Shown: positions 10,729 to 30,745 of the stretch, piece by piece | How positions within the stretch are numbered: the stretch's first letter is position 1 | Layout of the letters: each line of letters starts with the position of its first letter | DNA from: Panagrolaimus kolymaensis | Lineage: Eukaryota; Nematoda; Chromadorea; Rhabditida; Panagrolaimidae | DNA: 64,000 bases | Assembly: GCA_028622995.1 (NCBI GenBank) | Contig: JAJQJQ010000005.1 | Location: 3,720,001 to 3,784,000 of the forward strand | Direction of reading: 5' to 3' | The notes under the pieces: generated by a model | What the model was told of the DNA's origin: nothing | Seen by the model: the letters and a program-made list of their open reading frames with translations, nothing else | Databases searched by the model: none | Translations under genes and position numbers: made by a program

Positions 10729-10924
10729 GATGAGGTATTGCTTGTTTGTTTGTTTGTGAAACAAAAAGTCTAAAAAACAACAACCAGTTAGTGAAATAAA
10801 AAAAAAGCACGAAAGAGGGTTATTGAAATAAAATCTTTCCAAAAAAAGCTTTCAACTTTGTTTTGGACGCAAGCAAGAAAAAAACTGATGAAATTTTTTT
10901 TTTCATTTAACATTGGCCGCGGCG

Positions 10925-10965
10925 TTTTGGCGCCAAAAATGGGAAACACCTCCTTTTCCGCGAAA
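10925..10965. promoter_or_regulatory. Two E2F-type sites upstream of rnr-1
   Basis: TTTTGGCGCCAAAA (10925-10938) is a perfect palindrome containing the E2F/DP consensus TTTSSCGC on both strands. TTTTCCGCGAAA (10954-10965) is a second close match. They lie about 200 bases upstream of the rnr-1 start codon. E2F control of ribonucleotide reductase at G1/S is established in animals; its use here is inferred from position. Confidence 0.65.
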
Positions 10966-11576
10966 TTTGAACGGTGAATGACCGATGAACGAACAAATTC
11001 AAAGATCTTCTTCGAAAACTATAATAAAAAAATGGAAAACCATAGCAAATTTCTTTCCCGCCTTTTTGTGACGTCAAAGCTTCCATTTTTTGTTGATGTA
11101 TTAGTTAGTTTGTGTGTACAAAAATGGAACAGCTGAGGGCGGGTAAAAAGGATTTATGAGTTTATGAATGGCGAAATTACATCCATTTGAATTTTTCTTT
11201 GCCATTGACCTTCGAATGATCTTTCGAAATTTTTACGACGTCATCAAAATAGCATTCACTTGACCAACAAAAATAAGAATGGAAGCAAGCAAAAAATTCA
11301 AATAAATTAAAACCTTGGAATGGTTTGATGCAAACAAAAAATCTTGAAAGTGCTACTTCATACATATTATTTATTTTTAGCAATTTTGGCCTTTAAAATG
11401 AGAATCTTTTTTCTTTATATTTTATAATAAACTATTCCAATCTAATAAAAGAATTACTGTAATTAAAGGCAAAACCTTACAACGAACAAATTGTTTCTCC
11501 AATGTAAATGGAAAAATTGCGACTCATAAACTTGAAAATCCAAATAATCCTTTTATTAGTTTTTTTTATTTTTCAA
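10966..11576. other. Upstream region of rnr-1, no gene
   Basis: Apart from the E2F-like site near 11054 and a GC box near 11137, this is AT-rich sequence without a supportable gene. A minus-strand open frame near 11177-11383 is Cys/Phe-rich and has no family match. Confidence 0.5.
11054..11062. promoter_or_regulatory. Third E2F-like site
   Basis: TTTCCCGCC matches the TTTSSCGC core and lies in the same upstream region as the two sites at 10925-10965. A GGGCGGG box follows at 11137-11143. Single matches this short are weak alone; the cluster is the argument. Confidence 0.4.
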
Positions 11577-12362
11577 TTACATATGTTTATTTAAAAATGC
11601 TCCACGAGGTGAATAAATTTCTAATAGGCTAGTATTTTGTTCAGCACCAAAAACACCAAAAAGAATTAAACCTTCACGAATTTGATGACAAAGTTCCTAG
11701 AAATTTGATTCTTAAGAATTGATGGAAGTTATGATAATGGACTTACAGCGCTATCATTTAAAAGTAAAAACAAATCTGTGTAACGTTGAACACCTTTTTC
11801 CATTCCATAAATAGATGTCACATAATTATGATATTCAGAAATGAGATTGGTTTTAAAGTTTTTAGCTTCTTCGTTCATTGGATCCATTTGAATTACTAGA
11901 ATATATGACTTTCAAATTAGAGGAAATAAAGTGTTTTTGATGGATGGAATTAATTTGTTTTAGGGCTTCTTTGTTAATTACTGAAAGTTATTTACCTTGA
12001 CTTAATAAAATCATAATCACAGCTACACCAATATCCAATTCTTTGAGGTCGTGATTAACATATTTTCGAACCACATCCCTAATTTTTTTAATTGCATCCA
12101 CAAAATATCCATACATTCCATGATCCTTATTACTAAAAAATGCTTCAGGATTATTTATATCCACATGATATCCAAATCCTCCAGCAGCTTTGGTATCATC
12201 ATGTGGAAAAACTTGAAGAGTTATAATCATTTTAGTTAAACACATTAACCGAAAATTTATCACTTCTAATACATCTGTTTTAAATTGTTCTGATGAATCT
12301 CCAAAAAATGGAAAATGCGAATTTAAATTTAATTCCATAATGGAAAGAGAAATTTTTTCCAT
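11577..12362 (-). CDS. Possible nuclear-receptor ligand-binding-domain protein, no DNA-binding domain seen
   Basis: Exons read from MEKISLSIMEL at 12362. An upstream in-frame exon (DESIQASENPATCF, about 12507-12465) may extend the start but shows no Met in frame. The middle has LKELDIGVAVIMILLSQ, then across introns VQRYTDLFLLLNDSA and LCHQIREGLILFGVFG, ending with SLLEIYSP. The run of helices, the RYTDLF-like segment and the final LLEIY (similar to an AF-2 helix) fit a nematode nuclear receptor ligand-binding domain. The space upstream is only about 90 bases before the next gene's stop codon, so no zinc-finger exon fits nearby. It is either a DNA-binding-domain-less receptor, a fragment, or an unrelated helical protein. 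Family assignment is tentative. Confidence 0.42.
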
Positions 12363-12599
12363 TCTTCTATAAGTTTCTTGATCAATTGCTATTGACTAAA
12401 AATATTAATAATTAATTTTCTAAAACCAGGTTTGGAAACTACAAACTTCATTGGATGAAAAACAAGTAGCAGGATTTTCAGAAGCTTGAATTGATTCATC
12501 GTTAAAATAGAGCTATAACTAACTAATTTATTTTTATTTACTTATAAACAACATAATCAATATTAACAACAAAAATAAAATAACAACAAATTTATCACA

Positions 12600-14507
12600 T
12601 TATCCATAAATATCCTTCTTTTCAACCACCTTCTTTTCAAACACTTCTTTCTTCTTCTTTTTAGAGCGTCTATTAGATTCCCTACATCGATTTGCGTACT
12701 CTGGATCAGTTGCCTTTTTAAAATGATACTTTGACCTTGCTTTTTTATTTACCTCTGCTTTCTTATCGGGATCACGGTTGTCATTCCATCTTTTATAAGT
12801 TACAGCAATTCGTTCTTTGACTTCTGCATCACTTCGATTTATTTTCTGATTATGTAAGACATCTTCTCGATTACGTAGGTACCAATCATGCTTTCCCAAT
12901 TTTCTTGCTTCTTTATGACGTTCAGTTGAGCGTTTATTACTTTCAAGAGTTTCAGGTCCAGTTCGAAGATTCATACTTGTAAGTCTTTCTCCATTTATTT
13001 GTGCTTCACATATAAGTGCATACAAGTCATTAATTTCTTGTTCAGTTTCCAATTTACCATCAGCCTTGCCATTCTTGATATTTGTCAAGTTGATCTTTAG
13101 CCCACGAGATTTTAGAGAGATTTCATTTGAGATTATTTCAGCTTCGCATTTTATTGCACCTTGAGTTGTGCCAGCGTAAACCACGATCATCAGAATTTCT
13201 TCATTCAGCCTTCTTGCTTTCCGGATCAGTTCACTTTTATTTTTATTTGAATCGAATGACCAACAGTGCTGAGAAAAACGAGAACGAGGTTGTAAGCTTT
13301 CTCCAACGTAGATAATGACACCTTTGTGAATCAAAATGTAACAATAGTGTTCATGTTTAGCAACACATCTGGAAAGCCTTGAACGGGCTTTAGCAGCATT
13401 TCCATTAACATCACGAGAAGACTCTACATCGATTCCATTTGTCTTTCCAAGATTAACATGAGCACCATCCATAGGAAAAGCAAGAACAGACAAACACTTA
13501 GGAGCTCGACCATTAGGATCACGAGAAGACTCTACATCGATTCCATCATTCTTTCCATCATGAACATGAGCGCCATCCAAAGTTGAAGAAGAAGAGAGAA
13601 GCGTAGGAGGAGAAGAAGCAAGAATTACAGGATCTTCTGATGAACTCATAGCATTAGTGGATCCTTGACGTTCAAGATCGTCATAAAAAAGTTCGAATCG
13701 TTTTAACATTACAGGTAAATGACTTTCTGACAACTTGTCATCCAAGAATTTAGAAATCAAAGTAGCTGAATTTCTATTTTAACCAATATCTTCTGCTAGT
13801 TGATAGATTTTTTTATTATGATCTAAATAATATATATCAGTCGTTAGTCTATAAAAATAATATTTACCTTTCTTGTACTTTTCCACTTTTTTTTTCATAG
13901 CAATAACTTTCTCATTATCATACTTCATTCCAGAACTATTAATAGTTCTGAAAATATGTTTTCTTCTATTGATTTCAGTGACAGAGATTCTATCATTCTT
14001 TCCAACATTAACATCCAAAGAAGAAGGAGAAGTAAGAGATGAAGCACTTAAAGAAGCATTGTCGAGATCATCAGATGACCCTACATCGATTCCATTTGTC
14101 TTTCCATCATGACCATCAGCACCATCCAAAGAAAAAGTTGAAGAAGCAACCATAGGAGGATAAGCAAGAGTTGACGAACGCTTTGAAGTTGGACTATTAA
14201 CATTACGAAAAGACTCTACAACGATTTCATTATGAACATGAGAACCATCCATACGAGAAGAAGCAAGAGTTGTTGACGAACGTTTAGGAGTTGGACCATT
14301 AAGAACACCAGTTGAAGCACGCTTCTTTGAACGAACAAAAGAAGGAGAAGCTTTTTTGGTATCTTTAACCTTAAATATTCAAGGGATGAAAAAAGGTTTT
14401 TTAACAACAATAAAAAAGCATACCTTAGCTTTTACAAAGCTTAATGTGCTTTGCTTTCTTGGAACCATAGCAAAAGACATTAATTTGTCTTTATTAAGCT
14501 TAGACAT
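12600..14507 (-). CDS. GIY-YIG endonuclease-domain protein with N-terminal repeats
   Basis: Start MSKLNKDKLMSF at 14507; a short exon joins one opening VKDTKKASPSF. A good donor (AAAG/GTAAAT at 13867) and acceptor (ATTCAG at 13766) define a 102-base intron that removes an in-frame TAA. The N-terminal half has four imperfect repeats of about 27-33 residues with cores like GKTNGIDVESSRD. The C-terminal half holds a GIY-YIG domain: YCYILIHKGVIIYVGES, RSRFSQH with the conserved Arg, CEAEIIS with the metal-binding Glu, then INLTNIKNG. A Lys/Arg-rich tail follows, good for nucleic acid binding. GIY-YIG enzymes cut DNA in repair (SLX1 type) or as mobile homing nucleases. No RING-type finger of SLX1 is seen, so the role is open. 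Four copies of the block's 13-base motif lie in this gene. Confidence 0.75.
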
Positions 14508-14886
14508 TTTAACAATTAACTTTAAATAAATAGTTTTACACAGATTAAGAGAATAATAAACAAGGTTTATCAGTTTTTATAAAGAAAAAATCAGAAATGA
14601 AAAATGGCTAAAGAACAACTGCTTATAAAAGTTTCGACACGAAGCATACTTTACCTTTTTGGGTATTCATGTTGGACATGGCAAAAACCCGCGTTTTTGA
14701 ATTGCTTCTTTATCATAAAAAAAGACATAATTTGATTCAAGCTTCCTTTTTTTAGCTTTCAACCAAACATACAAAAAAGAGACACAAGTTTTTTTTTTCA
14801 ATCTTTATTCAATCTATTAAAATTACATAAATACTATAACACAGTTTTAATATTAGTTTACTACAATACACAAAAGTAAGTTATAA
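14508..14886. other. Intergenic, promoter side of GIY-YIG gene
   Basis: AT-rich, between the start of the GIY-YIG gene and the stop codon of the polymerase gene. No site is recognised. Confidence 0.5.
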
Positions 14887-16864
14887 TTATTCAGTGTTTG
14901 AAAAGACCAATTGAAGAGGAAGACGAAGGAGAAAGTGGAAGATGATGAGAGCAATTTTCCAGCCATTAACATTACACGATCTTGCCATATTCGATTCAGC
15001 ACAGTGATCATAAGCGATGATTATTTTAGAGAAGGTATCTCTTTCACTACCATCTGTCAATGGGCATTCTTCAGTTGGTTTTCGTCCTTTGAGTGTAAAT
15101 GCCATTTTAGACTTGATTTTATCAAACTTGATCATATATGCGCAGAAATCACGAATCAGTTTTTCGATTGACATTCGACCAGCATTGATAGGTTGAGGAG
15201 CATGTTCGATATCATAAATGAAGCTTAGACAAGCAACGACCAATGCAGAACTAAAATGAATAACACTCTACAACTATTTTTCATTCATCAAAAATCAAAC
15301 CTGGATAAACACATCATTTTTGTACCAATTGCGTTGGTTCTTTTCATAACGTATTTCATACCAGCGATAAATAGAGTAAGACGTTCTTTTTCTTCATTTG
15401 ATCGAGCTGCCAAGAGGTTTACGATTTCCAAGTTGAACTGAAGACCAACAGGATTCGGATTGATATCCATTTCGAGATCAAAGCCTCTCCATTTAGTGAC
15501 AGCATGGAGAATAGGTTGCTAAAAAAATCTTTGGTTTAACTAAACGATTAAAAAAGGAGTAAAACAACTTACTAATCCACGGCAAGCATATAATGTTTTA
15601 AACCGACGCAAAGAATATCTAATATGATTTCTCAAATGGCGGTTTATCCAATTATATCTCGCTACAGCTATTTGAACATTATCTTCTACAGGAATATCAC
15701 AATTGACAAGTACCAGATCCAGATCACTTCCTTCTTCCATAGCAAGTTCATAAAGAGTCGCACCAGTTTCATGAACTTGATATGGTGGATGTGGACATCT
15801 TCTAAATTGACGAGTCATTACTCCTCTAACCATTACATATGTATCACAGTTGCAGGATTTGAACTTTTCACGATTGAAGCGGTTGATCATTTCAAGCATA
15901 CATCCATGTTTATGTTGACTCTAAAAAGTAATAACATAAATATTTTAACCAACTTATAATAAAAAACTCACCATTAACTTTGGTCGAATAAGTTCAGTGA
16001 GATCAATACCAAATTCTGAGACGATAAGCAGTGCTTCGACTTGACGTTTCTTTGCCAACATTTCACTTGTTTCGTAAGCTTTGGTTTTCTTTCTTGAAAT
16101 GAGTAATAAATTCCAGGCATCTTTCCATCGTTGAACAAGTGTGGGTTCAAGTTGGTTGAGGTCTCGTCCTTGAAAGTTGAACGCTACATCTATTTGATCA
16201 TCCAAATCTCTGCCATAAATGAAGTTATATGTTGTAACATCTCCTTCATTACCACCAAGAGCAAAACCATAAGGACCATAAAAGAAATCATGTGGATTAC
16301 GTTCAGCATATTGAGCTTGAGCTTCTTGACGTTGACGGAGAAGTTGATCTTCGATATCTTCGCGACGTTCATCGTGAATTTCACGTGGTAAAGGAGCAAT
16401 GACATGTGGAACTACAGGTTCAAAAACATCAAGAGGATTAACAGCAACATCATTGACTTGAATACCATTATCAATTTCTCTAACAGCATTGTCAATATTT
16501 GGATCAACAAATTCAATACGTTCAGCATTAGCATAGCGGAATCTTTCAAAAATGTTGTATGGATCACGACGTTGGACGATACTTTGTTCAGTTTGAATAA
16601 GGCTATCCACAGCATCATTAAATCTTGTATCAACAGCATATGCAAATTGATCATCATCAAATGCTCGATCAGTTAAATCAACGTGCCAGAAAAACTATAA
16701 ATTACAGCTTTATATAAATAATAAAAGCAAAGTAAAGATAAACTAACTTCGTTGGTGGTGATAGCTAATCCAAGAAGGTTATATTCAATAGTGCCAACAT
16801 GACGAATAACTTCCATCAGTTGATCGTTGAGATGAAGTCGTGGATCATTTGGTTCTTCGGCCAT
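14887..16864 (-). CDS. Noncanonical poly(A)/poly(U) polymerase (TUTase-like nucleotidyltransferase)
   Basis: Five exons from MAEEPNDPRLHL (16864). After an acidic, disordered-looking N-terminal third (HDERREDIEDQLL region) comes a Pol-beta-type nucleotidyltransferase core: ETGATLYELAMEEGSDLDLVLVN carries the G-x motif and the first two catalytic Asp (SDLDL). WRGFDLEMDINPNPVG gives the third Asp in the usual setting. RLTLFIAGMKYVMKR then LSRFDFSALVVACLSF is the alpha-helical PAP/OAS1 part, and SERDTFSKIIIAYDHCAESN matches the PAP-associated segment. Enzymes of this class (GLD-2, CID-1/PUP, CDE-1 in nematodes) add A or U tails to RNA 3' ends in the cytoplasm or germ granules. The usual Gly-Ser is Gly-Ala here. 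It shares a palindromic leader with the divergent zinc-knuckle gene, which suggests co-expression. Confidence 0.75.
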
Positions 16865-16950
16865 TATCAAAGCACTCTACAACGATTTATGATATTCTTG
16901 ATGATGATGTATCTACAGCTATTTATGATATTCTTGATGAAGACGTTCCA
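16864..16950 (-). repeat. 34-bp leader repeat, two units
   Basis: Unit built on ATCATCATCAAGAATATCAT followed by AAATCGTTGTAGAG or AAATAGCTGTAGAT on the minus strand. It lies directly upstream of the polymerase start codon. Confidence 0.75.
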
Positions 16951-17564
16951 AAAGTTGCATAAAAAGTTGAAGAAGTTTTGAGGTTGAAAGTTTCGATGAA
17001 AGCAGCAGCAGCAGATTTTTGTTGAGAAAACCCTGAAACAAACACAAATATTAGTAAAGCTTTATATTTTTTTAGAAAATAAAAGAACGAAAAATAATTA
17101 CCGATGTTCAAAACAAAAAAAAATGGAGCAAGATCAAAACACAACTTCAACTGAAGTTTCAAAAAGTTGAAGAATGAATGAAGGAGAAAAAAAAGTGAGT
17201 GAATGCTTTCATTTTCTCTCTCTCACAAATTTTAGCATATTTTCTCATAAAACTTTCACAAACAAAATAACACGCAAATTTTTCGTTTCGCGATCATTTT
17301 TCTTCTCTCTTTCACTTTTTTTTTCTCCTTCATTCATTCTTCAACTTTTTGAAACTTCAGTTGAAGTTGTGTTTTGATCTTGCTCCATTTTGTTTTGTTT
17401 TGAAAATCGGTAATTATTTTTCGTTCTTTTATTTTCTAAAAAAATATAAAGCTTTACTAATATTTGTGTTTGTTTCAGGGTTTTCTCAACAAAAATCTGC
17501 TGCTGCTGCTTTCATCGAAACTTTCAACCTCAAAACTTCTTCAACTTTTTATGCAACTTTTGGA

Positions 17565-17675
17565 ACGTCTTCATCAAGAATATCATAAATAGCTGTAGAT
17601 ACATCATCATCAAGAATATCATAAATAGCTGTAGAGACATCATCATCAAGAATATCATAAATCGTTGTAGAGTGC
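17565..17675 (+). repeat. 34-bp leader repeat, three units
   Basis: Mirror of the repeat at 16864-16950 but with three units. Each ends with the 13-base motif or a variant (17587, 17623, 17660). It lies directly upstream of the zinc-knuckle start codon. Confidence 0.8.
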
Positions 17676-17682
17676 TTTGATA

Positions 17683-20101
17683 ATGGCCGATGGTAATGGT
17701 GCTGATTGGAACAACGAAGCTGGAACTCAAGCCTTGCTCAAAATGCTTAGAATGAGAATGGAATTCTCCTTGGGTGCTCTACGAATGATGATTATTAGAC
17801 TATCTGGTGGATTGAAGTACAAACATCTCCAACCTTCTTACAAGCTACCATTTCGAAACTACCTTCATGCTGCCGAAAGACTTCAAGCTCAACTGGTATC
17901 CTTTATGAATTTTGAGACTTTCAAGATGAGTGATATGGGCTATGTACAAACTCTTATCAACTATTCAACACCTCTCACAAAAGAAATTGAATCTTTCATC
18001 AATGAATATCGAAACTTTATTGATGGCTTTGAATTGGTATCTAGAAAAGATGTGTTTGTTTGTGATAAAGAAGGTAATGAAATTGAGTGTGAAGTTCCTG
18101 TAATTCCTGGAGTTATGTCTGTTAGTGGAATAAATCAAGATCCTTCAAAAGCAACACCTGCTACTGAATTTGTTAAATTGCTTGCTCCAACTCAAACATC
18201 GTACCGCTTTGAAACTGAAGAAGTTAAAGAAGGTGAAGAACGCAAGAACAAATTTACTCTTTTTAGTAAGTTTATTTATTCCTTGAATTGAACTTATTAA
18301 ACTCATTTTTAGTTCTTGAAAAGGGTCAATGTGGAAATTGCCTTCAAATGGATCAACATGTTGGTAAATGCAAGCGACCAATGAAATGTTTCCTATGTCA
18401 TCAAAAAGGATTGGATGGTCCAGAAACTCATCACAAATCTGAAGAATGCAAATTCCGTATGTTATAAATCGTTGTAGAGAAGGAAGAAAGTTTATGATCA
18501 TATTTTCAGATATTTGTAGCAACTGTCGAAAGCCATCACATGGTCCAAAGAAATGCCCATTACTTGGTATTCGATGTTGGAAGTGTTTACAAACTGGTCA
18601 TTATCATCACGAATGTCCAAATGCTGGAAAAGAAGGTGTGAAATGTTTGATGTGCGATGGTTATGGACATTTCTTGGATGAATGTGATATCGAGTGCGCG
18701 AATTGTCATACTGAAGGCCATATCCATACTTACTGTTCGGTGCCTCCTTGTTTACTCTGTACTGGGGATGGGCGTTTCAATCATGGTACTCTCGACTGCT
18801 TCAACCATAATCATCGAAAGGATAAACCTTGCAAAACATGTGGCAACAAAGAACATATCGCAAAAGAATGCAAATTGAAATGGTACACTTGTAAACCTTG
18901 TCGACAATGTGGTTCAAAGCTTCATCCAACTAATAAGTGTCCACCTTACTGCAAGAAGTGTCACCAACATCATGGTTTGAATCAATGTAAAGGAGACCGA
19001 AATCGTTGTAGAGTTTGTTGGATGCATCATGGTCGATTTGCTGAATGTCCGAAAATGAAAGATTCAATCCGTCATTATGTTCCAACATGTGGCTTATGTG
19101 CTAATAACAAACACACTTTTTCTGAATGTCCTTTATACAAAGAACCAATTCCATATTGTGCTAAATGTGAAGGATATCATCTTCGTGGAATTCAATGTGC
19201 TGTAGCTTTTTATTTGTATCAACGTTTCCCAGAAGTTCCGCAATATTACGAATCTCAAAGACAACATCGAAACTTCTTCAATGAATCTTATCATCAACAA
19301 GGCTCATCATCAAGTAACTTCCAATCTAGCTTTCAACAAAGATCAAGCCGTATGTCACAATCTGCATTTCCTTCTTCTTCTTTTTCTCAAAATCAACAAC
19401 CTATTGCTGTTGTTGCTCCGTCTTCATCACGTTCAAACTTTCAAAGTTCTCAACCTTATCAACGTTCAAGCCGCTATGAAGCATCATCAAAGAATCAACT
19501 TCGTGATCCTTATTGTCGTATTTGCAGAAATTATCATCTTGATAATGTTTCTTGTGAAATTGCCGCTGATTTTCGACATCGTGGAAGTAAGCTTTTTTAG
19601 TCTTTTATTGTTAAATAAGTATTTATTTTTCTTTTAGTTACAAGTGCTAATGCTGGACGATACCTTTCTAATCTTGAACGTGAACGTGAACGTGGAATAG
19701 TTGTAGAGAATGCTGCTCGTCAATCACGACAAGAACCTGCTCGTAGAACAAATGCTCGAAATCATAGCTCTCCACCACGTTTAACTGATCATCATTCATC
19801 TCATCGTTCTAGCTCTCATTCACCAAAAGAATCTCGTTCTCGTCGTTCTTCTGAATTAGGAAGAAATCGTGATGAATCTCATCGATCTCCTGAATTGAAA
19901 AAGCCAAGATCTCCTGCTCAAAGACGAGAAGCTGTTGATACTCGTAATGAAAATGATCCAAATGATTTGCCTATTTGCAAAAAATGTGGTGCACGTCATA
20001 TACCTCGAAATGCTAGAGATTGTCAGGTTGCATGGGGTGCTGCGCAATGTCGAGTTTGTAAAACCTGGCATGCTAATGGTAGCTTTGGATGCAAAAAGTA
20101 A
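17683..20101 (+). CDS. Multi-CCHC zinc-knuckle protein
   Basis: Start MADGNGADWNNE (17683), 11 bases after a 13-base motif copy. The first exon, about 195 residues, is helical with no recognised domain. Short introns at about 18267-18312, 18454-18510 and 19588-19638 join the rest. From GQCGNCLQ on there is an array of about a dozen Cys/His knuckles of CCHC or related spacing (CSNCRKPSHGPKKC, CWKCLQTGHYHHEC, CKTCGNKEHIAKEC, CRVCWMHHGRFAEC). A Ser/Gln-rich linker follows, then another knuckle, an RS-rich stretch (SHSPKESRSRRSS) and a last pair (CKKCGARH, CRVCKTWHANGSFGC). Such arrays bind single-stranded nucleic acid, as in CNBP-type proteins and retroelement Gag. No polymerase, protease or integrase is near, so a cellular RNA-binding role is preferred. 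Divergent pairing with the tailing enzyme suggests a shared RNA pathway. Confidence 0.75.
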
Positions 20102-20402
20102 AAAATTAATTGAATATTTATCCTATTTAATATTTCCATAGGATACTAATTATTCTGTGTTGAATCTTTCGTTCAACTTCTGTATGTTTATGTATTAAAT
20201 AATAAAGGTTTTATAATAATTTCTGCTCCTTCTTTTTTGTTTTTGTTTCAAACTTTAGTTGTAATTGATATGGCATACTCGCTTTAAAGAATGTTCAATG
20301 GAAACTTTGATACACAAACAACTTTCTTACTTAACTTTTATTTTATCACAAATAAACCAACAACAACAAAACATAATAAACTTTTAAATCAACATAATAC
20401 AA
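20102..20402. other. Convergent intergenic gap
   Basis: 3' ends of the zinc-knuckle gene (plus) and the BTB gene (minus) face each other. AATAAA-type signals occur near 20200 and 20355. No gene is seen. Confidence 0.6.
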
Positions 20403-21961
20403 TTATAAGAATCCTTTACAAATTTTTTTCAAGGTTTCTTTAGCAAAATCAGCATTGAGATCATCATAACCAGGAATAAAAGTTTTCTTACGAATGTAAT
20501 GGATCATTTGTTTCATGCATTCTTTTTTAAGTTCAACACAATCCATTTCAATAGCGATATTTGCTGAGCAACAAAGATTTCCAGTTTCAATTTCAGCTCT
20601 AAGACGAAGTTCAATTTCATCCTGAAATATTTTCTTCTGTTTAGATAAGAGTTTTGAAAATGTAACAAACCTTAACCCAAGCAAGTTGATATTTATTTGA
20701 GAAATCAAGCACAGCAATAAGAGTTTCTCGATCAAGATTTGCGACAACATCAAAATCATACAACGCTTTTACAGCCTCTACAACGATTCCAAATTCAAAG
20801 GTTTCTTCTTCATTGATGATAGCTTCTTCTTTCGATTCTTCAGTTTCACCAATCCCAATTCCAAGTTTCTCTGCGAATTCAGGTGCACGTTTTTGAAGAA
20901 CAAGCTTATGAACCTATAAAATTGAATGCATTTGCTTTGTAAATCATTAATAAAATAACGAGAAACTTACCTTCATTTCATCATCACCTATTTTGATAAT
21001 GAAGTCACAATCTTCGTCATCCCAAAGACATTCTTCAAGAACTAAAAGCTTTGGCTTCTTTGGTGGAACAGGAGAAACAAAAGGTCGCATAAGATCTTCA
21101 GGAACTTTCCAAGTTGAATCATCAGCTTCATCATCAGAGCATCTGATCTGTTTACCACGAGCATAGAGACAGTTCATAAGAGTATCATAACTACGATCAT
21201 TTTCTTCCAGTTTAAGGTCAGAAAAGACAGTGCCAACGGCTTCGCCTTGATTATTCTTTTTAACCAATGTTGCTTTGTTACCAACTAAGCTGAATTCACC
21301 AGAAAATGGAAAACTTTTCTTCTTTTTCTTTGCACTTTCAGCTGGTCCAAAGATACATTGATAAACTTTAGTTTGGTTAAAAGGTTCAGGAATAACAACA
21401 GGTTCTTCAACTGCTTTGCGTTTCATACAACCAGTTGACGCTACATCGATTTGCCTTTCTTGTTTACGACCAGTTGACGCTACATCGATTTGTCCTTCTT
21501 GTTTCCCATCCGATGATGAACCTTGACTTTGACTTTCACGTTGAGAAGAATGCTGAGAAGAATGCTGAGAAGAATGCTGAGAAGGATGTTGAGAAGGATG
21601 TTGAGAAGGATGTTGAGAAGGATGTTGAGAAGGATGTTGAGAAGAATGTTGAGAAGAACGTTGAGAAGAAAGTTGAGTTGATTCACGTTGAGAAGGACGT
21701 TGAGTTTCACGTTGAGAAGGAGGAGTAAATTGCATTGTTGGGCTGCGGTGAACAGGAGAAAAATTGTTTGAGGAAAGAGAATCAGTACTTCGTTGAACCA
21801 AATTACTAAAAATTTGATATATTACAAAAATAAAGTGAAAGAAAGTTAAGAAATAATTACCGAGAAGGATTTTGTGGTGCTTTTAAGCTTTGTTCAGAAA
21901 CCTTAAAGGTAGTTCCACCTTGAGTGGTAATTTCAAAAACAATTTTCTTGGCTTCAGACAT
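20403..21961 (-). CDS. BTB/POZ-domain protein with Ser-Gln-His-Pro repeat
   Basis: The start is taken at MSEAKKIVFEI (21961); the frame stays open up to 22069, so a longer N-terminus is possible. A short exon joins a Ser/Gln-rich region with SQHPSQHPS repeats. Two GRKQERQIDVASTG-type segments follow. A domain with VYQCIFGPAESAKK and GEFSLVGNKATLVKKN comes next (unrecognised). Then a BTB fold begins at DCDFIIKIGDDEMKVHKLVL and runs through FEFGIVVEAVKALYDFDV and LDFSNKYQLAWVKDEIELRL, ending KICKGFL. BTB proteins in nematodes often act as CUL-3 ubiquitin-ligase adaptors; the N-terminal part would then choose the substrate. That role is inferred from the family. The gene is divergent from the PCNA-like gene about 320 bases away and carries three motif copies (20776, 21439, 21478). 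Confidence 0.75.
21535..21700 (-). repeat. 12-bp coding minisatellite (Ser-Gln-His-Pro/Ser)
   Basis: About twelve units of GAGAAGGATGTT and GAGAAGAATGTT (plus-strand view) inside the BTB gene, encoding SQHP or SQHS. Unit length keeps frame, so copy number can vary without breaking the protein. Confidence 0.85.
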
Positions 21962-22280
21962 TACTTCTTTACAGAAAGAAATTTCACAAATTGTGTTAAC
22001 AAAGTTGCTTATTTTGAGTTTGTAAAAAATAAAAGAAGAAAAGCTTTTTGGGCTTCCTTTTTTTAGCATCAGCCATCTTACAACGAAGGCCTAAAAAAGG
22101 GGAATATACAGTATTCCACTGACTTCATTGAATTTTTTGAGATGTTCAATTTTTTTCTTCTAAGTTTTCGATAAATTTTCATTTTGAAACTTTTTTTGTG
22201 TCAAAATTATTTCATCTTTCCTGATTCGTTTGCTACCATCTCGTTTATTGAATCATTTTCTGAATCGTTGTAGAGTGAGT
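21962..22280. promoter_or_regulatory. Divergent promoter, BTB and PCNA-like genes
   Basis: A gap of about 320 bases between opposite start codons. A motif copy sits at 22263-22275, five bases before the PCNA-like ATG. On the other strand a related CGTTGTAAGATGG occurs at about 22068-22081 before a short upstream frame. No E2F site is seen, unlike rnr-1. Confidence 0.5.
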
Positions 22281-23418
22281 ATGGCTCCTCTTTTGAAAGC
22301 TAAACTTGGGGAAGTTTCAACGTTTATGAAAGCTATGGACATTGTGAAAGATCTCGTGCCAGATGTTACATTGAATTTCGACAAAAATGGTTTGTTCTTC
22401 CATTCTTATGATGTCCCAAAAGTTTCTCTTGTTTCTTTCTTGCTTCCTCGTGGTGAATTCGAAGAATATACATCTCATCGCATCCTTGCACTTGGTGTTA
22501 ACATGATTATGCTCTCTAAATATCTCAAATGTGCAAAAAATGATGATTCTTGTCTTCTTCTCTATGATGATGTTAAACCCAATTCTCTTGGTTTAATCTT
22601 TCATGATGAAAGAAAAAGTAGGGTTCAAGTGAGTTTTTTCATATTTATTTCATTCTAAACTTTTAACCTCTTCTTTTTTTAAGGAAGCTGAAATGCTTTT
22701 GATGGATATCGACAATGACCCCTTCGATGATCCAGAAATCGTGCGTGATGCTACTATCGAAATGGATGCTCTTGTTTTCTTCGAAATTTGTTCTCGTGTT
22801 GCTTTGTTTAGTGATGAATTCAGTATCGCTATGGATAAAGATGCCATTTACTTTTATGGAAAAGGTACTGATGGTAACTATTTTAGCAAAATTTGTAAGG
22901 AATCAATAGATGTAGAGCGCTTTGTCTTCAATCCTGCTAAAAAATTCGTATCACAAAAGTTCGCCATCAAGAATATCCTCATCTTCTCAAAATCTCATAT
23001 TATTGCTGATACCGTCCTTCTCTGTTTCTCTCATGCTTTACCAATGCTTGTTGAATATAAATTCATGGAAAGTGGCATCCTTCGTTTTTACATCGCTGGG
23101 AAAGTTGATATTGATGGAGAAAGTGATTGTGAAACTCTTGGTGAAGAAAAAGAATCAGATGGAGAAGAATCTAGCAGCGAAGAAGAATCTAGCAGCGAAG
23201 AAGAATCTGATGGTGAAGAAGATGAAAATCTTGATAAAGATGATTGCTTTGAAAATGAGGATGAATTCATGGACGCTCAAGATGCTGATGAAATGATGGA
23301 AACCGACAAAGCTGCCAAACCTCGTCCTAAGCAAATTGCTGTAGATGATTGGAATGATGTATGGAGTGATGATCTCGGTGATGATTTCGACGATGATGAC
23401 GAAATTTTCAACTTTTAA
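22281..23418 (+). CDS. PCNA-like sliding clamp paralogue with acidic tail
   Basis: Two exons (22281-about 22629 and about 22683-23418), roughly 360 residues. Residues 1-250 follow PCNA in order: LLKAKLGEVSTFMKAMDIVKDLV, FHSYDVPKVSLVSFLLP (PCNA has SSHVSLVQ here), ALGVNMIMLSKYLKCAKNDD (very close to PCNA) and LGLIFHDE. EAEMLLMDIDND stands at the interdomain linker and MLVEYKFMESGILRFYIAGKVD at the end (PCNA: VVEYKIADMGHLKYYLAPK). It then adds about 105 residues rich in Glu, Asp and Ser ending DDDDEIFNF, absent from PCNA. PCNA forms a ring on DNA that holds polymerases, nucleases and ligase. Divergence in the middle third and the tail suggest a specialised clamp, not the replicative one; a second, ordinary PCNA gene should exist elsewhere. 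Motif copies lie just before the ATG and at 22905. Confidence 0.8.
23155..23215 (+). repeat. Short coding repeat in acidic tail
   Basis: Tandem near-copies of GAAGAATCTAGCAGCGAA in the PCNA-like gene, encoding EESSSEEESSSEEES. Probably an expansion of a casein-kinase-II-type acidic serine tract. Confidence 0.6.
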
Positions 23419-23909
23419 AATTGTTTTGTATGTTTTTGTCTTAAAGCGTTTCATTGCTTTCTTGTTTCTTTCATTAATATGTAATTGAATTTGTTAAATA
23501 GTTTTGTTGTTAATGAATAAAATAAACTTTGTTTTTATATTGTTTCCTAATCGTCTAATTACAAATTTTTCACCTGAGAATGAAAACGCAAGTGAAAATT
23601 TATTGTGCAACATTCTTTTTTTTACTTTACCAAAAGAAAATTTGTATGAAAAAATGCAAAAACTTTTTCGCCTTTCTCTTTGTTCAGTTTTAGTCATTCA
23701 CTTTTTCTCTTTTTCATAAAACGTATTATCAACTCTGCTTTTCACTTAATCAAACCAACTAAACGAGTTTTATTATTTTAACAACAAACAAATAAGTATC
23801 AAGAGGATATAAAACACAATATAATAAACAATAAAAGATGATGAGATTGAATTATTAAAAGAAAAATAACAAGAATAGGATAATGAAGTTTTAACCATTA
23901 CATCCAAGT
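23419..23909. other. Convergent intergenic gap
   Basis: 3' ends of the PCNA-like gene and the F-box-like gene. AT-rich; short open frames on both strands have no domain. Confidence 0.55.
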
Positions 23910-25183
23910 TCATTCTTCGAAAAGAGCATTCATATCCTCATCTTGAGAATCACTATCAACAGGTTGAACAACAAGAGCAATATCAAGTTCAAAGTTGAAA
24001 CCATCATGAATGGGAAAGTTTTTCTTAATAACATAAGTTACATCATCGAATTGCATAAATTCTTGTCCATTTATTTCTTCACGTGCCTAAAAAAAGGAAA
24101 ATGATAATTAAGGACAAATTACCGAAATACAAAGCTTACATTTCCAACAGTTACAAAATAATCTTGAAAACGATTTTCTGTAACTTTGATTGAACCTTGG
24201 AGAGTTGGACCAAGTTCACGAAATGATAAAGGCATTAATGCAAGAGCAGTTGGTCCGATTAGTTCCCAATCCGAAGACACTTCAATCTCTACATCGATTT
24301 CCCGTAAATTTGTAAAGGTTTGATTGACGAATTTGATGAACTTCTTGAGAGTTTTCATGTTAAATTTGGACATAGAAAAACGTGCTGTGAACTTTTCAAC
24401 ATAAGGAAACTCGAATCTGAAAAAAAAGACATGTTTCAATGACAATAAAAAAAAAACATACTTGATTGGACGGCAATTATACCAATAGGAAGTGAGCGTT
24501 TCAACCTTGAGATGACGACATGATGGAGGAACGATAACAAGCTTGAAATAAAGCTCCTATAAAAAGTTAAGTGTTAAAAAAACATAATAAACAAAGCTAA
24601 CTTACAAAAACACTTCTACGGTTGTCATAGACTTTAACCTTTTGAACGTTATCCAAAATTCGTAACTTTTCAATGAATTTCATAGGAATTCCATCTCCAC
24701 AATACACTTTCGTTAAGCCTAAAAGTTAACAATTAATACCACTTTTAATAAAAATAAAAAGACTTACCATTATGAATAAAAGCATCCAAAACTTTGAGTT
24801 GGTCAGCAGCTTCAGTATAAGCATGGATTGTCAAGCCTTTAATTTGAGCTTTCTTCGCTACATCTATTAACCATTTTACCAAAGGAGATTCAAATGGAAC
24901 ATCACAATAAATTGTGCGATAATCAACCTAAAAATAAATCGAAATTAAAGAGTAATAGTAAATTAACCAAAAGAAAAAAACTTACAGGTCGACAGAAACT
25001 AATTGCTAGGCTGCGAAATAAAATCCTAACTTTTTTTGCACGAGAGAAAGCTTTTTTTGCGATATTGAAATTTTCTTTACCAACTAGCATAAAATTAATG
25101 ATTGATTCATTAACTGAACCATTTGATTGACGCAAAGTTTCATTGAAAACTTCTGCCAAGATATCACGATTGAGAACAGGCAT
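23910..25183 (-). CDS. F-box-like protein of nematode type
   Basis: About six small exons from MPVLNRDILAEVFNETL (25183). The opening (LNRDILAEVF, then INFMLVGKENFNIAKKAF) has the spacing of an F-box helix pair. Later exons (LTIHAYTEAADQLKVLDAF, KVYCGDGIPMKFIEKLRIL, RHLKVETLTSYW, LREIDVEIEVSSDW) look like the degenerate leucine-rich or FTH-type repeats seen in the many nematode F-box proteins. It ends acidic (DSQDEDMNALFEE). F-box proteins are SCF ubiquitin-ligase adaptors; this role is family-based. The match is weak and no single motif is decisive. Motif copies at 24287 and 24856 tie it to the same block as the upstream five genes. Confidence 0.5.
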
Positions 25184-25199
25184 TTTGATTGCCTAAAAA

Positions 25200-26092
25200 T
25201 TAAATAAAAAATATGAGATTGAAAAATATTGCAAGCGGTGTTAAAAATAAGCGAAAGTAAAAAACTAAAACTTTTCTGAGAAAGAAAGGAAATGAAAAGA
25301 GAAATTTAGGCTCTGCTGTTAGTTCACAAATTACCAAACATTTTTTATTAAACGAAAAATCTCTGTTTTTGTCCACTTCTGCTATGATTTCATCGACCAA
25401 TTTATCACTAAATTTGTTCGCCCATAGTAGTAATAAAAAACAAACTGTTAAGGTAACATAAACTTTAGCACTGGATGGAAGACCAAAAACTATGGAATAA
25501 ATTAAAAATATTAAAGGAATTTCCCAAAAAATAAATTGTGTTATCAAAATTAAAGTAACATAAATAAAAATTTTAAGTTGAATTTTTGATGATGTGTTTG
25601 AAAAGGCGAGACGTTGTTTTACTAAAATTAAAGAAGCAATATAAATTGACTTAACTAAAAGGGCTTGAATTGATTTTAATGAATTATAATACATTTTAAT
25701 AAAATCATTAATTTTCCATAAACTTGGTTGAAGTTCAATATTTAAATTTTCTGAAGAAATATTTATATGTGGATCGGAAACTGATGGAGATGATGAAACT
25801 ACCATTTCAGATGATTTTGATGGACATTTCATTCCACAACTTACACATTTTTTGAGTCGACATGCTCGGCAACAATTTCGAGATTCTAAAAACTTATTGT
25901 AAATTAAAAGATTTCTGACGAATGATGATACAAACCTCGATTAATTTCACATTGATTGTTTTGCCGGCAATCATATGATTTATTTTCAGCTATAGTTCGA
26001 CGAAAAAACGAAGCGCATGGCCTACAAACATACGAACCAAAGTGCCATCCTTCTCCAAGTTGACCACAAACGACACAAGGCTTATGTGGCAT
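25200..26092 (-). CDS. Nuclear-receptor zinc-finger domain joined to hydrophobic C-terminus
   Basis: Exon 1 from MPHKPCVVCGQLGEGWHFGS (26092) holds the first nuclear receptor finger, CRPCASFFRRT, and the start of the second (YDCRQNNQCEINR). An intron (about 25935-25887) joins exon 2 with ESRNCCRACRLKKCVSCGMK, completing the DNA-binding domain with all eight Cys. After about 80 residues, where a ligand-binding domain is expected, come strongly hydrophobic stretches (KIFIYVTLILITQFIFW, IPLIFLIYSIVFGLP, VYVTLTVCFLLLLWA) that look like membrane segments, then more hydrophobic residues to the stop at 25200. Either the true gene ends earlier or splices elsewhere, or the ligand domain has been lost and a membrane-like tail took its place. 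Confidence 0.65.
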
Positions 26093-29000
26093 AATTATGA
26101 AGCTTCTTAACTTTGCTCATAAAAAATTTTAAAAAAGCTAAAAAAAAATGAAACAAAATTTTTTAAAGCCAAATCGAAGACAATTGCAAAAATTTTAAGC
26201 TAATATCAACGAATGTTTTTAAAATAATGAAAATGAATAGTTTTACATTTATAAAATCAAAAAAATCAGAAGAAAATAAAATAAAGTAGAAATTCTTTAT
26301 TCATAGAAAAGTTGTTGTGATTTATTGATCAATTTTTTTCTTTTTACAATTGAAGGTTGTGTTACAAACTACAAAACAAACTCCACAGCATACATATAAA
26401 TGTAGCTATGTAGTCTGAAGTTGTCGTCTACTTGAAAGATATGTAATAAACAGAAAGGTGCTCTCTGTTCAAGTTCTTTCCTTGTAATTATTTGAATACC
26501 GTAATCGATGGTTTATAAAAATGCAAATAAGATCGAGGATGCACAATTCTATGATTTTTTGTTTTTAAAATTTGTTTCGCACTAACTTTGATTTTGTAAT
26601 TTACTCAATTATTGCAACACAATTTTTTTATTAACATGCATGCCAATACTACAGTAATTTTCATAATTAGCAAAATAATTAAATGGAGACCGGCATCACA
26701 AAGCTGACGTGTACGCAGGGTAACACGACAGCGCTCCAGAGTGCGATGGCGGCAAAAACTTCATACAAGCAAACAACAATAATTTTTCCAATTCAAACAA
26801 AAAAAATATTCAAAAAACACAATTAGTTGGGGAAAGATGGAATGGAGGGTGAAACATGGTGATGGACACCGGAAGGGCAAGGAGTAGTAGTTCGGTAATA
26901 GTAGTAATATTACATCAATGCGCGAATACACCTTATTTTACAACAAAAATAAAAACATAATTACAATAAAAAAATTTAAATAAAAAAATCTGTTTTCTAT
27001 GTACATGAAAGACTTGTGGCAGTAATTTGGCCACGTATCCACCGGGTTAAAGGCGAAAACGTAGCCTTTTGAAAGTGGCAGTGATAAGTGGTAGAAAATT
27101 ACAAAAAAAAAATGTTACTAAAAAATACAATTTAAAATAAAAAAGAATTACTCGAGTTAAAATTAACAACAAACATTTCAAAATATGAGATATTTGAAGC
27201 TATGTTTTGCGAAAAAGTGGTATAAAATAAATTTTTAAAAATTAGAATGGTTTTTAGAAAATAATGTATCATCGAAATGAAACATTTGGCAGTGGTTCAG
27301 CGAAAGTGGCAGTGCTGGATTCGCGGCAGTGTTGATTGAAGATAGAGAGAGTAAAAAAAATCCGGGGACGAGACATTCATCAAATTTGGGGTTGGTGGTG
27401 AGAGAGGGAGTGAGGGCAAACTGTACACTCACCGGGAGAGCATTCACTTCCGGCGCTGTTTCCATTACAAAAAAAAATTTAACTAAAAAAAATCTAGCGG
27501 GACTAAAGGAATTTTATTTAACAAATAGAAACAAGAAGGAATTGTGTTTGAATTTTTCTTTATGAAGGAACGATCGATGGTGGAAAGGATAATTAATTGA
27601 AGTTGTTTTTTGAAATTTTTTGTTTATTTCATTAAAAGGAAGCGGTGTATAAGAGCCTGAAAGTCGAAGTTTATTAATTATGGAAAGCAATCGCGGCTGT
27701 AAAGAGAAAACTAAGATTTAGAAAAATGCAGTTAAAAACTCTAAGCTTTCTTTTCGCTTCCCATATTTGTTTCTTCAAAATAATTTACCTTTAAATGGTG
27801 ATAAGCTCGCCATCATATCATTTTCAGTAACGCAAAAATAAAGAATTAAAACGTGTACCGAACCGAACATACACGTCCCGCTTTCTCGCTAGCGTTGCCG
27901 GTCATGTTATAAGGCAACCATTAAAAATACTGTAGCATAAGCATTAAAAAAATATTTTCCTAATAAAAATATACAGATAATATATTTTTTATTTTTTTGA
28001 ACCAAAGTATGAGAATTGTAAACAGATTTGAAAGACTTGATGGTAATAAGTTAAATCAGGCAGCAACAAGGTGATGGATGATGTGGGATGGTAATGAAAG
28101 ACTTTGCTGGGTAGTTAAATGAAGATGGTGATGATAGGTATCCCATTGAATTAATAACTTTAACTTAATTTTGAATTTCTCCCATTTCTGGGAGAAATCA
28201 ATGAAAAGAAAAAGCTAAAAAAGGGATACTTGTAGTCTACGCTCTGCTACATTATTGAACTGAAATTTTAAAAAGCATATAGTAAAATTTAAATTTAATG
28301 AAATTCTTTTTTTTTCGCGAAAAAAAGAAGAATGAATGTGAATATAATTAACTTTAGTGCGCGAAAAATATTTTTTTTAAAGCAAAGTGAAAAAATCGAA
28401 TCGCGAATCCACGCACAGTTGGCTCTCATTTGAATAATAAATTTGAAACTTTTTTTTATTACCCCGAAAAAAAAGACAAAATTTTTAGAAAGAAAAAAGA
28501 ATTTTTCCCCTAAACAATGATCATAAATTCAGATAGTCAGCCATTAGTTGGAACCCATAAAAACACGTTAAAGAAAAAAAGAAACAAAGGCTTTTTTGGT
28601 TTTCATAAACCCCGAAAGCCATAGGACATGTGTGCTTTTTTTTCTTTGACCATTTTTTTGCGTCAAAGATGCTTGTCTTAGAAAAAATGATACTGTTGTT
28701 GTTTCCACAATGTACGAATAAACACATATGTGTCGCGGCATACGTTTTTGGAATGGCTACTCTCTACCCTTGGACTATGTGACAAGCCAAAAACAAAAAA
28801 ATTGCGGCACGTTTAAGAACGCACTGGCACGTGTTTTTGCGTTGTCCTTTTCTCTCCCTTTTTTTTTGACTATCTACTATCTCCCCCGTGGCACCAGTTG
28901 ATATAAGAGTGAGTTGCATTTTTTCTATTGACGGACTTTAGAAGAAAAAAAAAGTGACCAAAAGAGGACATTTTGTGTTTGCGTGTACCAACCAAGCATT

Positions 29001-30745
29001 CTATCTATCCAACAGCCGCTAGAATAAAAAACTAAAAAGGAGTTTTTTTATTGCAAAGATTATAAAGTCATGAAAAAAGTAAGCAAAAAAATAAATAAAA
29101 AGCTAAAAGTGTACTTTTTAGAGAGAAAGTGGCTTTAAAGTTAGTAAAAATGGCAAAAGTGTTGTATGGATAAAAAAGTTTGGGAATTTCAATGCATAAA
29201 ATTAAAAAGAGAATGGATAAAAATTGTTTATAATTTATATTATTTGTTACAAATAATATTGGAATCAAATTGCAAAAAACGCGAAAACGTTTTGGAAGAT
29301 TGTTTGGGTCAATCCAGAATAGCGGACACGAATTTTTACACACAGAAAATTCAAGGTTTTAAAATTTGATAAATTTTAAAAATTCTAGAGCCTTTATGAC
29401 ATTCCCAATCTTTAATGTTCTAACTTAAAAGAAATTCGTAGAGTTTAATTCCTATTTCAAAATTTGCAAGAAAATATAGTACTAGCCTTAAAACTTCCAC
29501 ATTTTTTTACTTCAAAAAAACCATTAACAATCCAGTCTTTTCCCGAAAAAAAAGAGAATGAAAATATTTTTCTTTTGCTTGATACATTTTTACTTTTTCT
29601 TTTTCAACTGCAAATGCAATAGCAGAAGAAAAGGCTTCTAATATTATTGCAAAAAAAAAAGCATGTCTAGCAAGCAAGCATCCTTCTCTTCTTATTTTTT
29701 CCTTCAAAAACTAAAAAATGACCAACGCAAAAAAATAATATATAGGCCTCCTCCATCTTTGTATTTTTTTCATCAAAAAAAGAAAAGAAAGAAAAAATAA
29801 CAAAAATGTGTGCAAGCATTTTGTTGACGCCACCACCATCACTAACAGCCAGCAGGCATGTGTTGTCTGTGACGACAGACAAAACAAAAAAAGCTTAACT
29901 TGTTCTTCGTTTTCTTGGACATCGTTGTCGTCGTAGTCTCAATTTTTTTGCTTCTTCCAAAATAGAGAATTTTACTGGGAAAAAAATTGCACGCGAGTAT
30001 GTATGTCCGAAGATAAAAAAAGTGTCTGTTATGTCCACTATACTCCTCCTGATGCGTGTTTTTACGGCGGAGAGCTTCAAAAAGGAATTTAAAAAGAAAA
30101 TGGTTCTAAAAATAGAAAATCAAAAAAAGAAAAGCTGAAATTTGAAGAAAAAAAAATAAGGAGAAGACGAAGAGAAAAAACGGGGATAAAGAAGGAATGG
30201 TTGCTTTTGTATACGAACATAAAAAAATATATTTAAAATTGGTTAAAAAAGGAGAAGTGTTGGATGGAAAAATCGTGGTATCGTATCAAATTTTACAAAG
30301 GTGTAAGAAAGAAATATGAAACGTTTTAGATTTTATTTTTGATCCTTTTGAACTTAAAAATATTTCCTAAAAGTTTCAAACAACTACATTGAAAGTTAAT
30401 TTAGGAACAAAAAATTTAGAGAAATTTGTCATTTGTGTTTTTAGTTAACTATTTTTTTGTAAGTGATTCAACTTCCAATGAATCAACATTGGTTACTTTT
30501 TCCACTGAAATCAATTTTGAAGGTAATATCACAAAATAATGAAAGCTTCAATAATTATTGTAAAAGTTTAAAAGATCAATTTCATAACTAAAGCCTTCAA
30601 TGACTTTGTTGAATAAAAACATTATCCCAAAAATTTCTCAACTAATGGATATGATTTTCACAAGAATAAAAGAATAAAAAAGGAGAGAAATATCCGAATA
30701 TGAATGGCCGACTGACCGAATTTTTCGAAAAAAAAAATCCATAAT
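26093..30745. other. Long noncoding stretch
   Basis: About 4.6 kb without a supportable gene. It is AT-rich with some more GC-balanced islands (26690-26760, 26840-26930, 27010-27340, 27860-27910, 28715-28880). The 27.0-27.3 kb island has five copies of GGCAGT on one strand. No tRNA or array repeat is recognised. It could hold distal regulation or introns of an unseen gene. Confidence 0.5.

What the first reader, a model, noticed from the sequence alone, without database searches (positions are those of the whole stretch)
13422..24868. Sense-strand 13-base motif in all genes of one block
AATCGTTGTAGAG or close variants (AAT[AC]G[TAC]TGTAG[AC][GT]) occurs at 13422, 13530, 14079 (one base off), 14214, 15266, 15660, 16182, 16875, 16911, 17587, 17623, 17660, 18467, 19001, 19696, 20776, 21439, 21478, 22263, 22905, 24287 and 24856. 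All 22 are on the sense strand of the gene they sit in, though genes point both ways. They lie in coding exons, 5' leaders (16875, 17660, 22263) and introns (15266, 18467). Coding copies mostly read I-[VDA]-V-[EA], but 19001 is in another frame (NRCRV), so the constraint is on nucleotides. I saw no full copy in rnr-1, the hAT element or the palindrome. Possible readings: a small-RNA target or licensing tag, an RNA-binding-protein site, or a chromatin mark site for a co-regulated domain.
Basis: seen in the sequence. Interest (0 to 1): 0.92.

Follow-up and report, generated by a model that had tools for sequence, protein, structure and literature searches.

The report
Mobile gene block's sense-strand RNA tag
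A 13.2-kb inserted block of six genes, found on one of three sister chromosome copies in a genome that is very likely that of the permafrost nematode Panagrolaimus kolymaensis, carries the same 13-letter word on the sense strand of every gene about every 600 letters, and the word likely serves as a tag read on the growing RNA that marks these mobile genes as belonging together.

Summary
AATMGHTGTAGMK occurs 21 times in the window, all at 13,422-24,868 and all sense in my gene models: 13 in coding exons, 6 in leaders, 2 in introns. Synonymous-codon shuffles of the six CDS give 0.6 on average against 13. Genome-wide it is not enriched (140 hits, reversed control 225): 38 of 52 G-ending hits lie in the block and at seven related loci. 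The block is an insertion: window 12,497-25,662 is missing at two homeologous loci and flanked by a 13-bp duplication. Related GIY-YIG-type cassettes lie in or beside other host genes, one missing from a homeolog; 9 of 10 known loci carry the word in sense clusters, with local dialects. At the nine fixed positions the six genes and eight cassettes hold 69 perfect sense copies, one with a single mismatch, and no perfect antisense copy. Spacing in the block is even (394-807 nt). I read it as a nascent-transcript identity tag; its reader and function are inferred. DNA binding by the GIY-YIG protein is the main rival.

The parts
12497..25662 (.). 13,166-bp inserted element that contains all 21 exact motif copies
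   Evidence: Flanks contiguous at the C21 and C10 homeologs
12484..12496 (.). left copy of the 13-bp duplication GCTTGAATTGATT
   Evidence: present once in the C21 empty site
25663..25675 (.). right copy of the 13-bp duplication
   Evidence: may be partly microhomology with the receptor-like fragment beside it
12600..14507 (-). GIY-YIG gene, 3 exons, 583 aa; motif at 13422, 13530, 14214 (near copies 12680, 14079)
   Evidence: PF01541 26.7 bits, cut-off 22.6; model
14887..16864 (-). orphan gene C, 5 exons, 589 aa; motif at 15266 (intron), 15660, 16182, leader 16875 and 16911
16875..17636 (.). 320-bp inverted repeat (99%), mirrored leader region of gene C and the zinc-knuckle gene
17683..20101 (+). 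orphan zinc-knuckle-rich gene, 4 exons, 755 aa; motif at leader 17588, 17624, 17660, 18467 (intron), 19001, 19696
   Evidence: zinc-knuckle Pfam hits are below cut-off
20403..21961 (-). BTB-domain gene, 4 exons, 465 aa; motif at 20776, 21439, 21478
   Evidence: PF00651 27.1 bits, cut-off 20.5; model
22281..23418 (+). divergent PCNA-like gene, 2 exons, 360 aa; motif at leader 22263 and 22905 (near copy 23334)
   Evidence: PF00705, PF02747; 33-37% identical to the host PCNA triplet
23910..25183 (-). gene of a large host family (labelled F-box-like by recall), 6 exons, 339 aa; motif at 24287, 24856
   Evidence: no Pfam family above cut-off
25352..25662 (-). fragment of a host receptor-like gene forming the right end of the element
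   Evidence: 25437-25674 is 97% identical to C21:2517987-2518224 and C4:4342100-4342337, 92% at C10 over 225 bases

Best explanation
The 13-mer is a nucleotide-level cis tag carried by every gene of a mobile GIY-YIG gene block, and it most likely works in the growing, unspliced transcript, where a sequence-specific factor would bind it and mark the RNA, or the chromatin it is made on, as one regulon. Shown: the block is an insertion; the tag sits on the sense strand of all six genes at even intervals; the same tag, in local dialects, marks related cassettes elsewhere; codon choice is bent to keep it; copies are whole or absent.
For: All 21 exact copies sense in genes pointing both ways; 15 non-tandem copies all sense would be about 3e-5 by coin toss. 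Nucleotide level: in the six CDS the peptide I-[VDA]-V-E is written with GAG 7 of 7 times (GAG is 8% of Glu codons) and I-[VDA]-V-A with GCG 5 of 5 times (GCG is 5% of Ala codons), and Val is GTA in 15 of 16 I-[VDA]-V peptides (20% of Val codons); one exact coding copy is in another frame, six copies are in leaders and two in introns. In eight related cassettes all 44 I-[DVA]-V-[AEDV] peptides have GTA (background 23%) and a preceding A. All or none: 69 sense copies perfect at the nine fixed positions in six genes and eight cassettes, one with a single mismatch, none perfect antisense. Spacing in the block: 12 gaps of 394-807 nt, mean 603, CV 0.21, P about 5e-5 under uniform placement and 2e-4 if gaps under 200 are forbidden. 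Confined to the mobile family: 38 of 52 G-ending hits. Mobility: empty sites at C21 and C10 for the block and at C21 for the C45/C4 cassette.
Against: No RNA data; the RNA-level reading rests on strand and position. A strand-specific DNA process tied to transcription would look the same. Motif sites are not more unpaired than controls (0.39 against 0.45). Counting all 13 columns, substitution at motif sites is higher than outside in 4 of 6 paralogue pairs; degenerate columns and misaligned repeats inflate this. A few copies look decayed at fixed positions, for example at L035 3683 with two changes. Two I-[VDA]-V peptides of the block do not follow the word (one with GTT for Val, one ending ACT). 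Spacing in solo cassettes is looser, up to 1114 nt. The spacing test uses three near copies, gene spans and a 200-nt rule chosen after seeing the data; the largest gap alone is not unusual (P 0.07). No reader was identified.
Confidence: 0.42

Rival explanations
1. The 13-mer is the DNA recognition site of the GIY-YIG protein or a partner, which binds its own family's genes to regulate or shield them, or in homing-like replacement.
For: Each of the nine motif clusters found lies at a cassette of this family. A domain like the window's GIY-YIG is found by search at six of them, a sub-threshold GIY-YIG match at C15 (20.2 bits, cut-off 22.6) and only a weak one at C45 (14.0 bits); C4:3.18M, 90% like C45, was not scanned. 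Dialects differ by locus, and cassettes differ or are missing between homeologs.
Against: Plain DNA binding gives no reason for the sense-only orientation or for even spacing along transcripts; a nuclease with 21 sites in its own block would damage it; the C16 relative has a similar domain but no exact motif.
Confidence: 0.22
2. The motif is the target of a small RNA (piRNA or secondary siRNA) that licenses or silences the block, as in nematode selfish elements.
For: Sense-only sites in exons, leaders and introns fit nuclear small-RNA targeting; RNA-mediated control of a selfish nematode element is reported (PMC10990930, search listing and start of abstract).
Against: The conserved core is 13 nt without a conserved flank, shorter than a piRNA; positions 4, 6 and 12 take A, C or T across loci, which no single guide base pairs with; copies that attract silencing should not be gained repeatedly.
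Confidence: 0.15
3. The constraint is on the peptide I-x-V-[EA], for example a short protein-binding motif.
For: 12 of 13 exact coding copies share a frame, and in the GIY family the peptide lies in basic, Ser-rich repeats.
Against: Rare codons, 44 of 44 cassette peptides with the same nucleotide frame of the word, copies in another frame, in leaders and in introns.
Confidence: 0.04
4. The copies spread by duplication of one repeat among neighbouring genes.
For: Tandem or repeat-borne copies exist (13422/13530, 17588/17624/17660, 21439/21478), and the 320-bp inverted repeat doubles leader copies.
Against: 15 non-tandem copies share little beyond the 13 columns, and a 13-bp insert in coding sequence would shift the frame.
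Confidence: 0.04

Closest known systems
RNA regulons of sequence-specific RNA-binding proteins such as PUF proteins (recalled)
   Same: Short sense-strand motif shared by linked transcripts; a TGTA core is present
   Different: As recalled, PUF sites are 8-9 nt and mostly in 3' UTRs; here the word tiles exons, leaders and introns, and a fixed AAT-G arm precedes TGTA
Periodic A/T clusters that protect nematode germline genes (recalled)
   Same: Nucleotide-level feature along whole genes, including introns, linked to escape from silencing
   Different: Those are phased A/T runs, not a 13-base word, and are not bound to one mobile family
GIY-YIG homing endonuclease genes (recalled)
   Same: GIY-YIG domain, cassettes in or beside host genes, presence/absence between homeologs
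   Different: Known examples that I recall are in organelles, phages and microbes; here nuclear animal loci with cargo genes and a shared word; homing was not tested
Giant cargo transposons such as Starships and Mavericks (recalled; PMC11623301 seen as listing and abstract start only)
   Same: Multi-gene mobile insertion with cargo
   Different: No recombinase, integrase or polymerase domain met in the proteins scanned, and no terminal inverted repeat seen by eye at the two ends

Membership tests
Mobile (insertion) element | Empty site and target duplication | tested here: met
   Block: two empty homeologous sites and a 13-bp duplication. C45 cassette: empty site without clear duplication
Mobile (insertion) element | Shared termini among copies | tested here: inconclusive
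   Left end TTTTAACGATG shared by the window, L035 and L042; right ends differ between copies
GIY-YIG homing element | GIY-YIG catalytic domain | tested here: met
   Window gene 26.7 bits, C6:5.95M 26.3 bits, cut-off 22.6; C15, C1 and C45 matches are below cut-off
GIY-YIG homing element | Site-specific cleavage and copying into the empty allele | not testable with these tools
   Needs biochemistry or crosses
RNA-binding-protein regulon | Sense-strand motif shared across transcripts | tested here: met
   21 of 21 exact copies sense in the gene models; transcription itself not observed
RNA-binding-protein regulon | A protein that binds the motif in RNA | not testable with these tools
   No binder identified
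PUF regulon | UGUANAUA-type 8-mer (consensus recalled) | tested here: not met
   Fixed AAT-G arm, G after TGTA, and G at position 13 in all 15 non-tandem copies
Starship, Maverick or Helitron | Their signature enzymes | tested here: not met
   No such Pfam domain in the proteins scanned of the six genes (the zinc-knuckle protein's last 269 residues were scanned only in part); other open frames of the block were not all scanned

The most novel reading that the evidence does not exclude
A family of animal nuclear mobile elements writes its own 13-nt identity code into the sense strand of every gene it carries, in locus dialects and at a pitch of about 600 nt, so that its nascent RNA is recognised as self: an RNA-level self-tag of a selfish gene block.
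Probability: 0.33. Interest if true: 0.93.

Novelty: categorically new. Interest (0 to 1): 0.78.

Why it matters
Sense-only, evenly spaced words kept in unrelated coding exons, leaders and introns of all genes of a mobile block are not a feature of any transposon class that I can name. If the tag is read on RNA, the question of how nematodes tell self from foreign transcripts becomes testable with a defined 13-base signal, and mobile genes would be shown to carry an identity code that does not depend on their proteins. It also reveals GIY-YIG-type cassettes that differ between the three chromosome sets of what is very likely an asexual triploid animal.

Tried and rejected
Genome-wide regulatory motif: rejected, hits below the reversed-pattern control (140 against 225; 52 against 95; 25 against 68). 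Chance or codon bias: rejected. Peptide motif: disfavoured. Tandem duplication: rejected for 15 non-tandem copies. Structured RNA: motif no more unpaired than controls, no Rfam match at gathering score in the window. Viral origin: no relative of the zinc-knuckle part or the GIY-YIG exon in viral contigs, host-like introns, and two genes related to host families. A second sense-biased word, TTCAACTT, also occurs outside the block and was dropped. Protein database searches found nothing at the limits used for gene C and the GIY-YIG exon (E 1) and the zinc-knuckle part (E 0.1); the method needs shared 5-residue words. PDB: gene C one weak match (E 0.28), GIY-YIG exon none. Structure of the largest exon of gene C: uninformative (pLDDT 33). 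Paper searches: motif letters 0 papers; GIY-YIG with transposon, nematode and PCNA 0; others listed nothing relevant by title and abstract. BTB relatives in the genome: not completed.
Full report
Setting. The window is C4:3720001-3784000 of a 265.8-Mb, 807-contig genome. A published assembly of the triploid, parthenogenetic nematode Panagrolaimus kolymaensis has 266 Mb and 856 contigs, and 49 mitochondrial contigs are mentioned (PMC10374039, passages read). 856 minus 49 is 807, so the identification is very likely, but it is my inference. Several loci come in threes, for example host PCNA on C43, C51 and C61.

The observation. AATMGHTGTAGMK has 21 exact matches in the window, 8 on + and 13 on -, all between 13,422 and 24,868. 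With gene models made by hand (six genes, each with one continuous spliced frame) each of the 21 is sense: 13 in coding exons, 6 in leaders, 2 in introns. Three further copies, at 12680, 14079 and 23334, differ only at degenerate positions. Shuffling synonymous codons in the six CDS gives 0.61 copies on average (maximum 4 in 2000) against 13; antisense 0. The best dispersed 9-mer of the block reaches z 39.8; four control regions of the window reach 10.2, 16.0, 9.0 and 27.9, the last inside a palindrome that doubles every word.

Not a genome-wide signal. The pattern has 140 hits in the genome, its reversed control 225 (only the first 100 places are listed). Of 52 hits that end in G, 19 are in the block, 19 at seven related loci (C1:3.38M, C4:3.18M, C6:3.91M, C15:1.04M, C32:1.60M, C32:2.13M, C45:0.14M) and 14 are isolated; the control has 95. 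A variant ending TG has 25 hits (control 68) and clusters only at C15:1.04M and C6:5.95M, again related loci.

The block is an insertion. Window 8000-12,496 and 25,663-30,000 are contiguous at two homeologous places, C21:1,890,567-1,899,414 and C10:5,372,467-5,381,264 (94-97% identity). The 13,166 bp between are absent there and are flanked in the window by GCTTGAATTGATT on both sides. The left end TTTTAACGATG is shared with L035 and L042. The right end is a piece of a host receptor-like gene (97% to C21:2.518M), so the right junction may rest on microhomology rather than a clean target duplication. The insertion appears to split a nuclear-receptor gene whose zinc-finger exon is at 25,904-26,116; that the left flank belongs to the same gene is inferred.

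Contents. A GIY-YIG gene (PF01541). Gene C, single copy apart from a fragment at C32:2.13M, without Pfam family or match in the protein search. A zinc-knuckle-rich gene, single copy by its first 486 residues, without match in the protein search. A BTB gene. A PCNA-like gene, 33-37% identical to host PCNA. A gene of a large host family (59 matching places including its own) that I label F-box-like by recall. Gene C and the zinc-knuckle gene share a 320-bp inverted repeat as a mirrored leader. By DNA, 15.1-25.2 kb occurs only here apart from two matches of under 80 bases.

Relatives. Ten places, the window included, hold a cassette related to the window GIY-YIG gene. Nine carry the motif in clusters, all exact copies on the cassette's sense strand; the C16 relative, of which I fetched 2.2 kb, has no exact hit. 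Host genes around them: a VPS13 gene at C15 (144.8 bits), an AMP-binding-enzyme gene at C1, and at C45/C4 a gene with a homeobox seen by eye. The C45 cassette is missing at C21:1.484M, where its flanks join. At C1/C6 the flanks are about 96% identical, while the cassettes are 80-88% in the best local matches and about 69% in a global alignment with repeats, as if one had been replaced. Modules vary: two GIY-YIG-like domains at C1, C32:1.60M and C6:3.91M, HMG boxes at C45 with only a weak GIY-YIG match, and a sub-threshold GIY-YIG match at C15. The word stays, in dialects: GTAGTG at C15 and C6:5.95M, mostly GTAG[AC][GT] elsewhere.

Nucleotide, not peptide, and all or none. In the six CDS the peptide I-[VDA]-V-E is written with GAG 7 of 7 times (8% of Glu codons), I-[VDA]-V-A with GCG 5 of 5 (5% of Ala codons), and Val is GTA in 15 of 16 I-[VDA]-V peptides (20%). 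The exceptions are told: one peptide in the zinc-knuckle protein uses GTT, one in the GIY-YIG protein ends ACT. In eight cassettes I looked for I-[DVA]-V-[AEDV] without asking for codons: 44 of 44 have GTA and a preceding A; Glu is GAG in 15 of 18. Many are related repeats, so these are not 44 independent events. Counting only the nine fixed positions, the six genes hold 24 and the eight cassettes 45 perfect sense copies, against one sense copy with a single mismatch; antisense there is none perfect and one with a single mismatch. Copies with two mismatches, the chance level, occur on both strands. At least one, L035 3683, is a decayed repeat copy.

Spacing. Counting close copies as one, gaps within genes are 742, 549, 394, 522, 693, 807, 534, 695, 663, 642, 429 and 569 nt. 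So low a spread arises with P about 5e-5, or 2e-4 if gaps under 200 nt are excluded. Without the intronic copy at 18467 one gap would be 1341 nt on the genome (about 1.24 kb spliced), so the evenness belongs to unspliced RNA or DNA. Solo cassettes are less even, up to 1114 nt. The test used the three near copies and choices made after seeing the data.

Mechanism. Sense-only orientation in genes that point both ways argues for a process that follows transcription; leader and intron copies argue for nascent RNA. I therefore propose a nascent-RNA tag read by a sequence-specific factor, with shared expression or escape from germline silencing as the likely gain. Factor, binding and gain are inferred. 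The main rival is DNA binding by a protein of the cassettes, since each cluster found lies at one. Against both: no binding data, no RNA data, and motif sites not unusually unpaired.

Novelty. The motif letters occur in no paper of the held library. Searches for GIY-YIG with nematode mobile elements and for homing endonucleases in animal nuclear genomes listed nothing relevant by title and abstract. The library lacks most subscription journals and preprints.

Noticed in passing
   Followed up: no
window 42504-64000: Near-perfect palindrome, 99.75% over 21.5 kb around 53,252, reaching the window's edge; may be biological or an assembly fold-back.
   Followed up: partly
window 16875-17636: 320-bp, 99% inverted repeat forms the mirrored leader region of two divergent genes with different coding parts.
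   Followed up: partly
window 25200-25940: The nuclear-receptor frame runs on without a stop into the receptor-like fragment at the element's right end.
   Followed up: partly
L034 and L037 (C1 and C6): Homeologous flanks about 96% alike, but the GIY-YIG cassettes between them far more different, as if one had been replaced.
   Followed up: partly
L036 3576-5240: This cassette encodes two HMG-box stretches (51.8 bits) and only a weak GIY-YIG match.
   Followed up: partly
L037 3382-3724: Six tandem 66-bp units, each with one motif copy, in a basic repeat of a cassette protein.
   Followed up: partly
window 1930-2417: Degenerate tandem repeat of about 87 bp.
   Followed up: no
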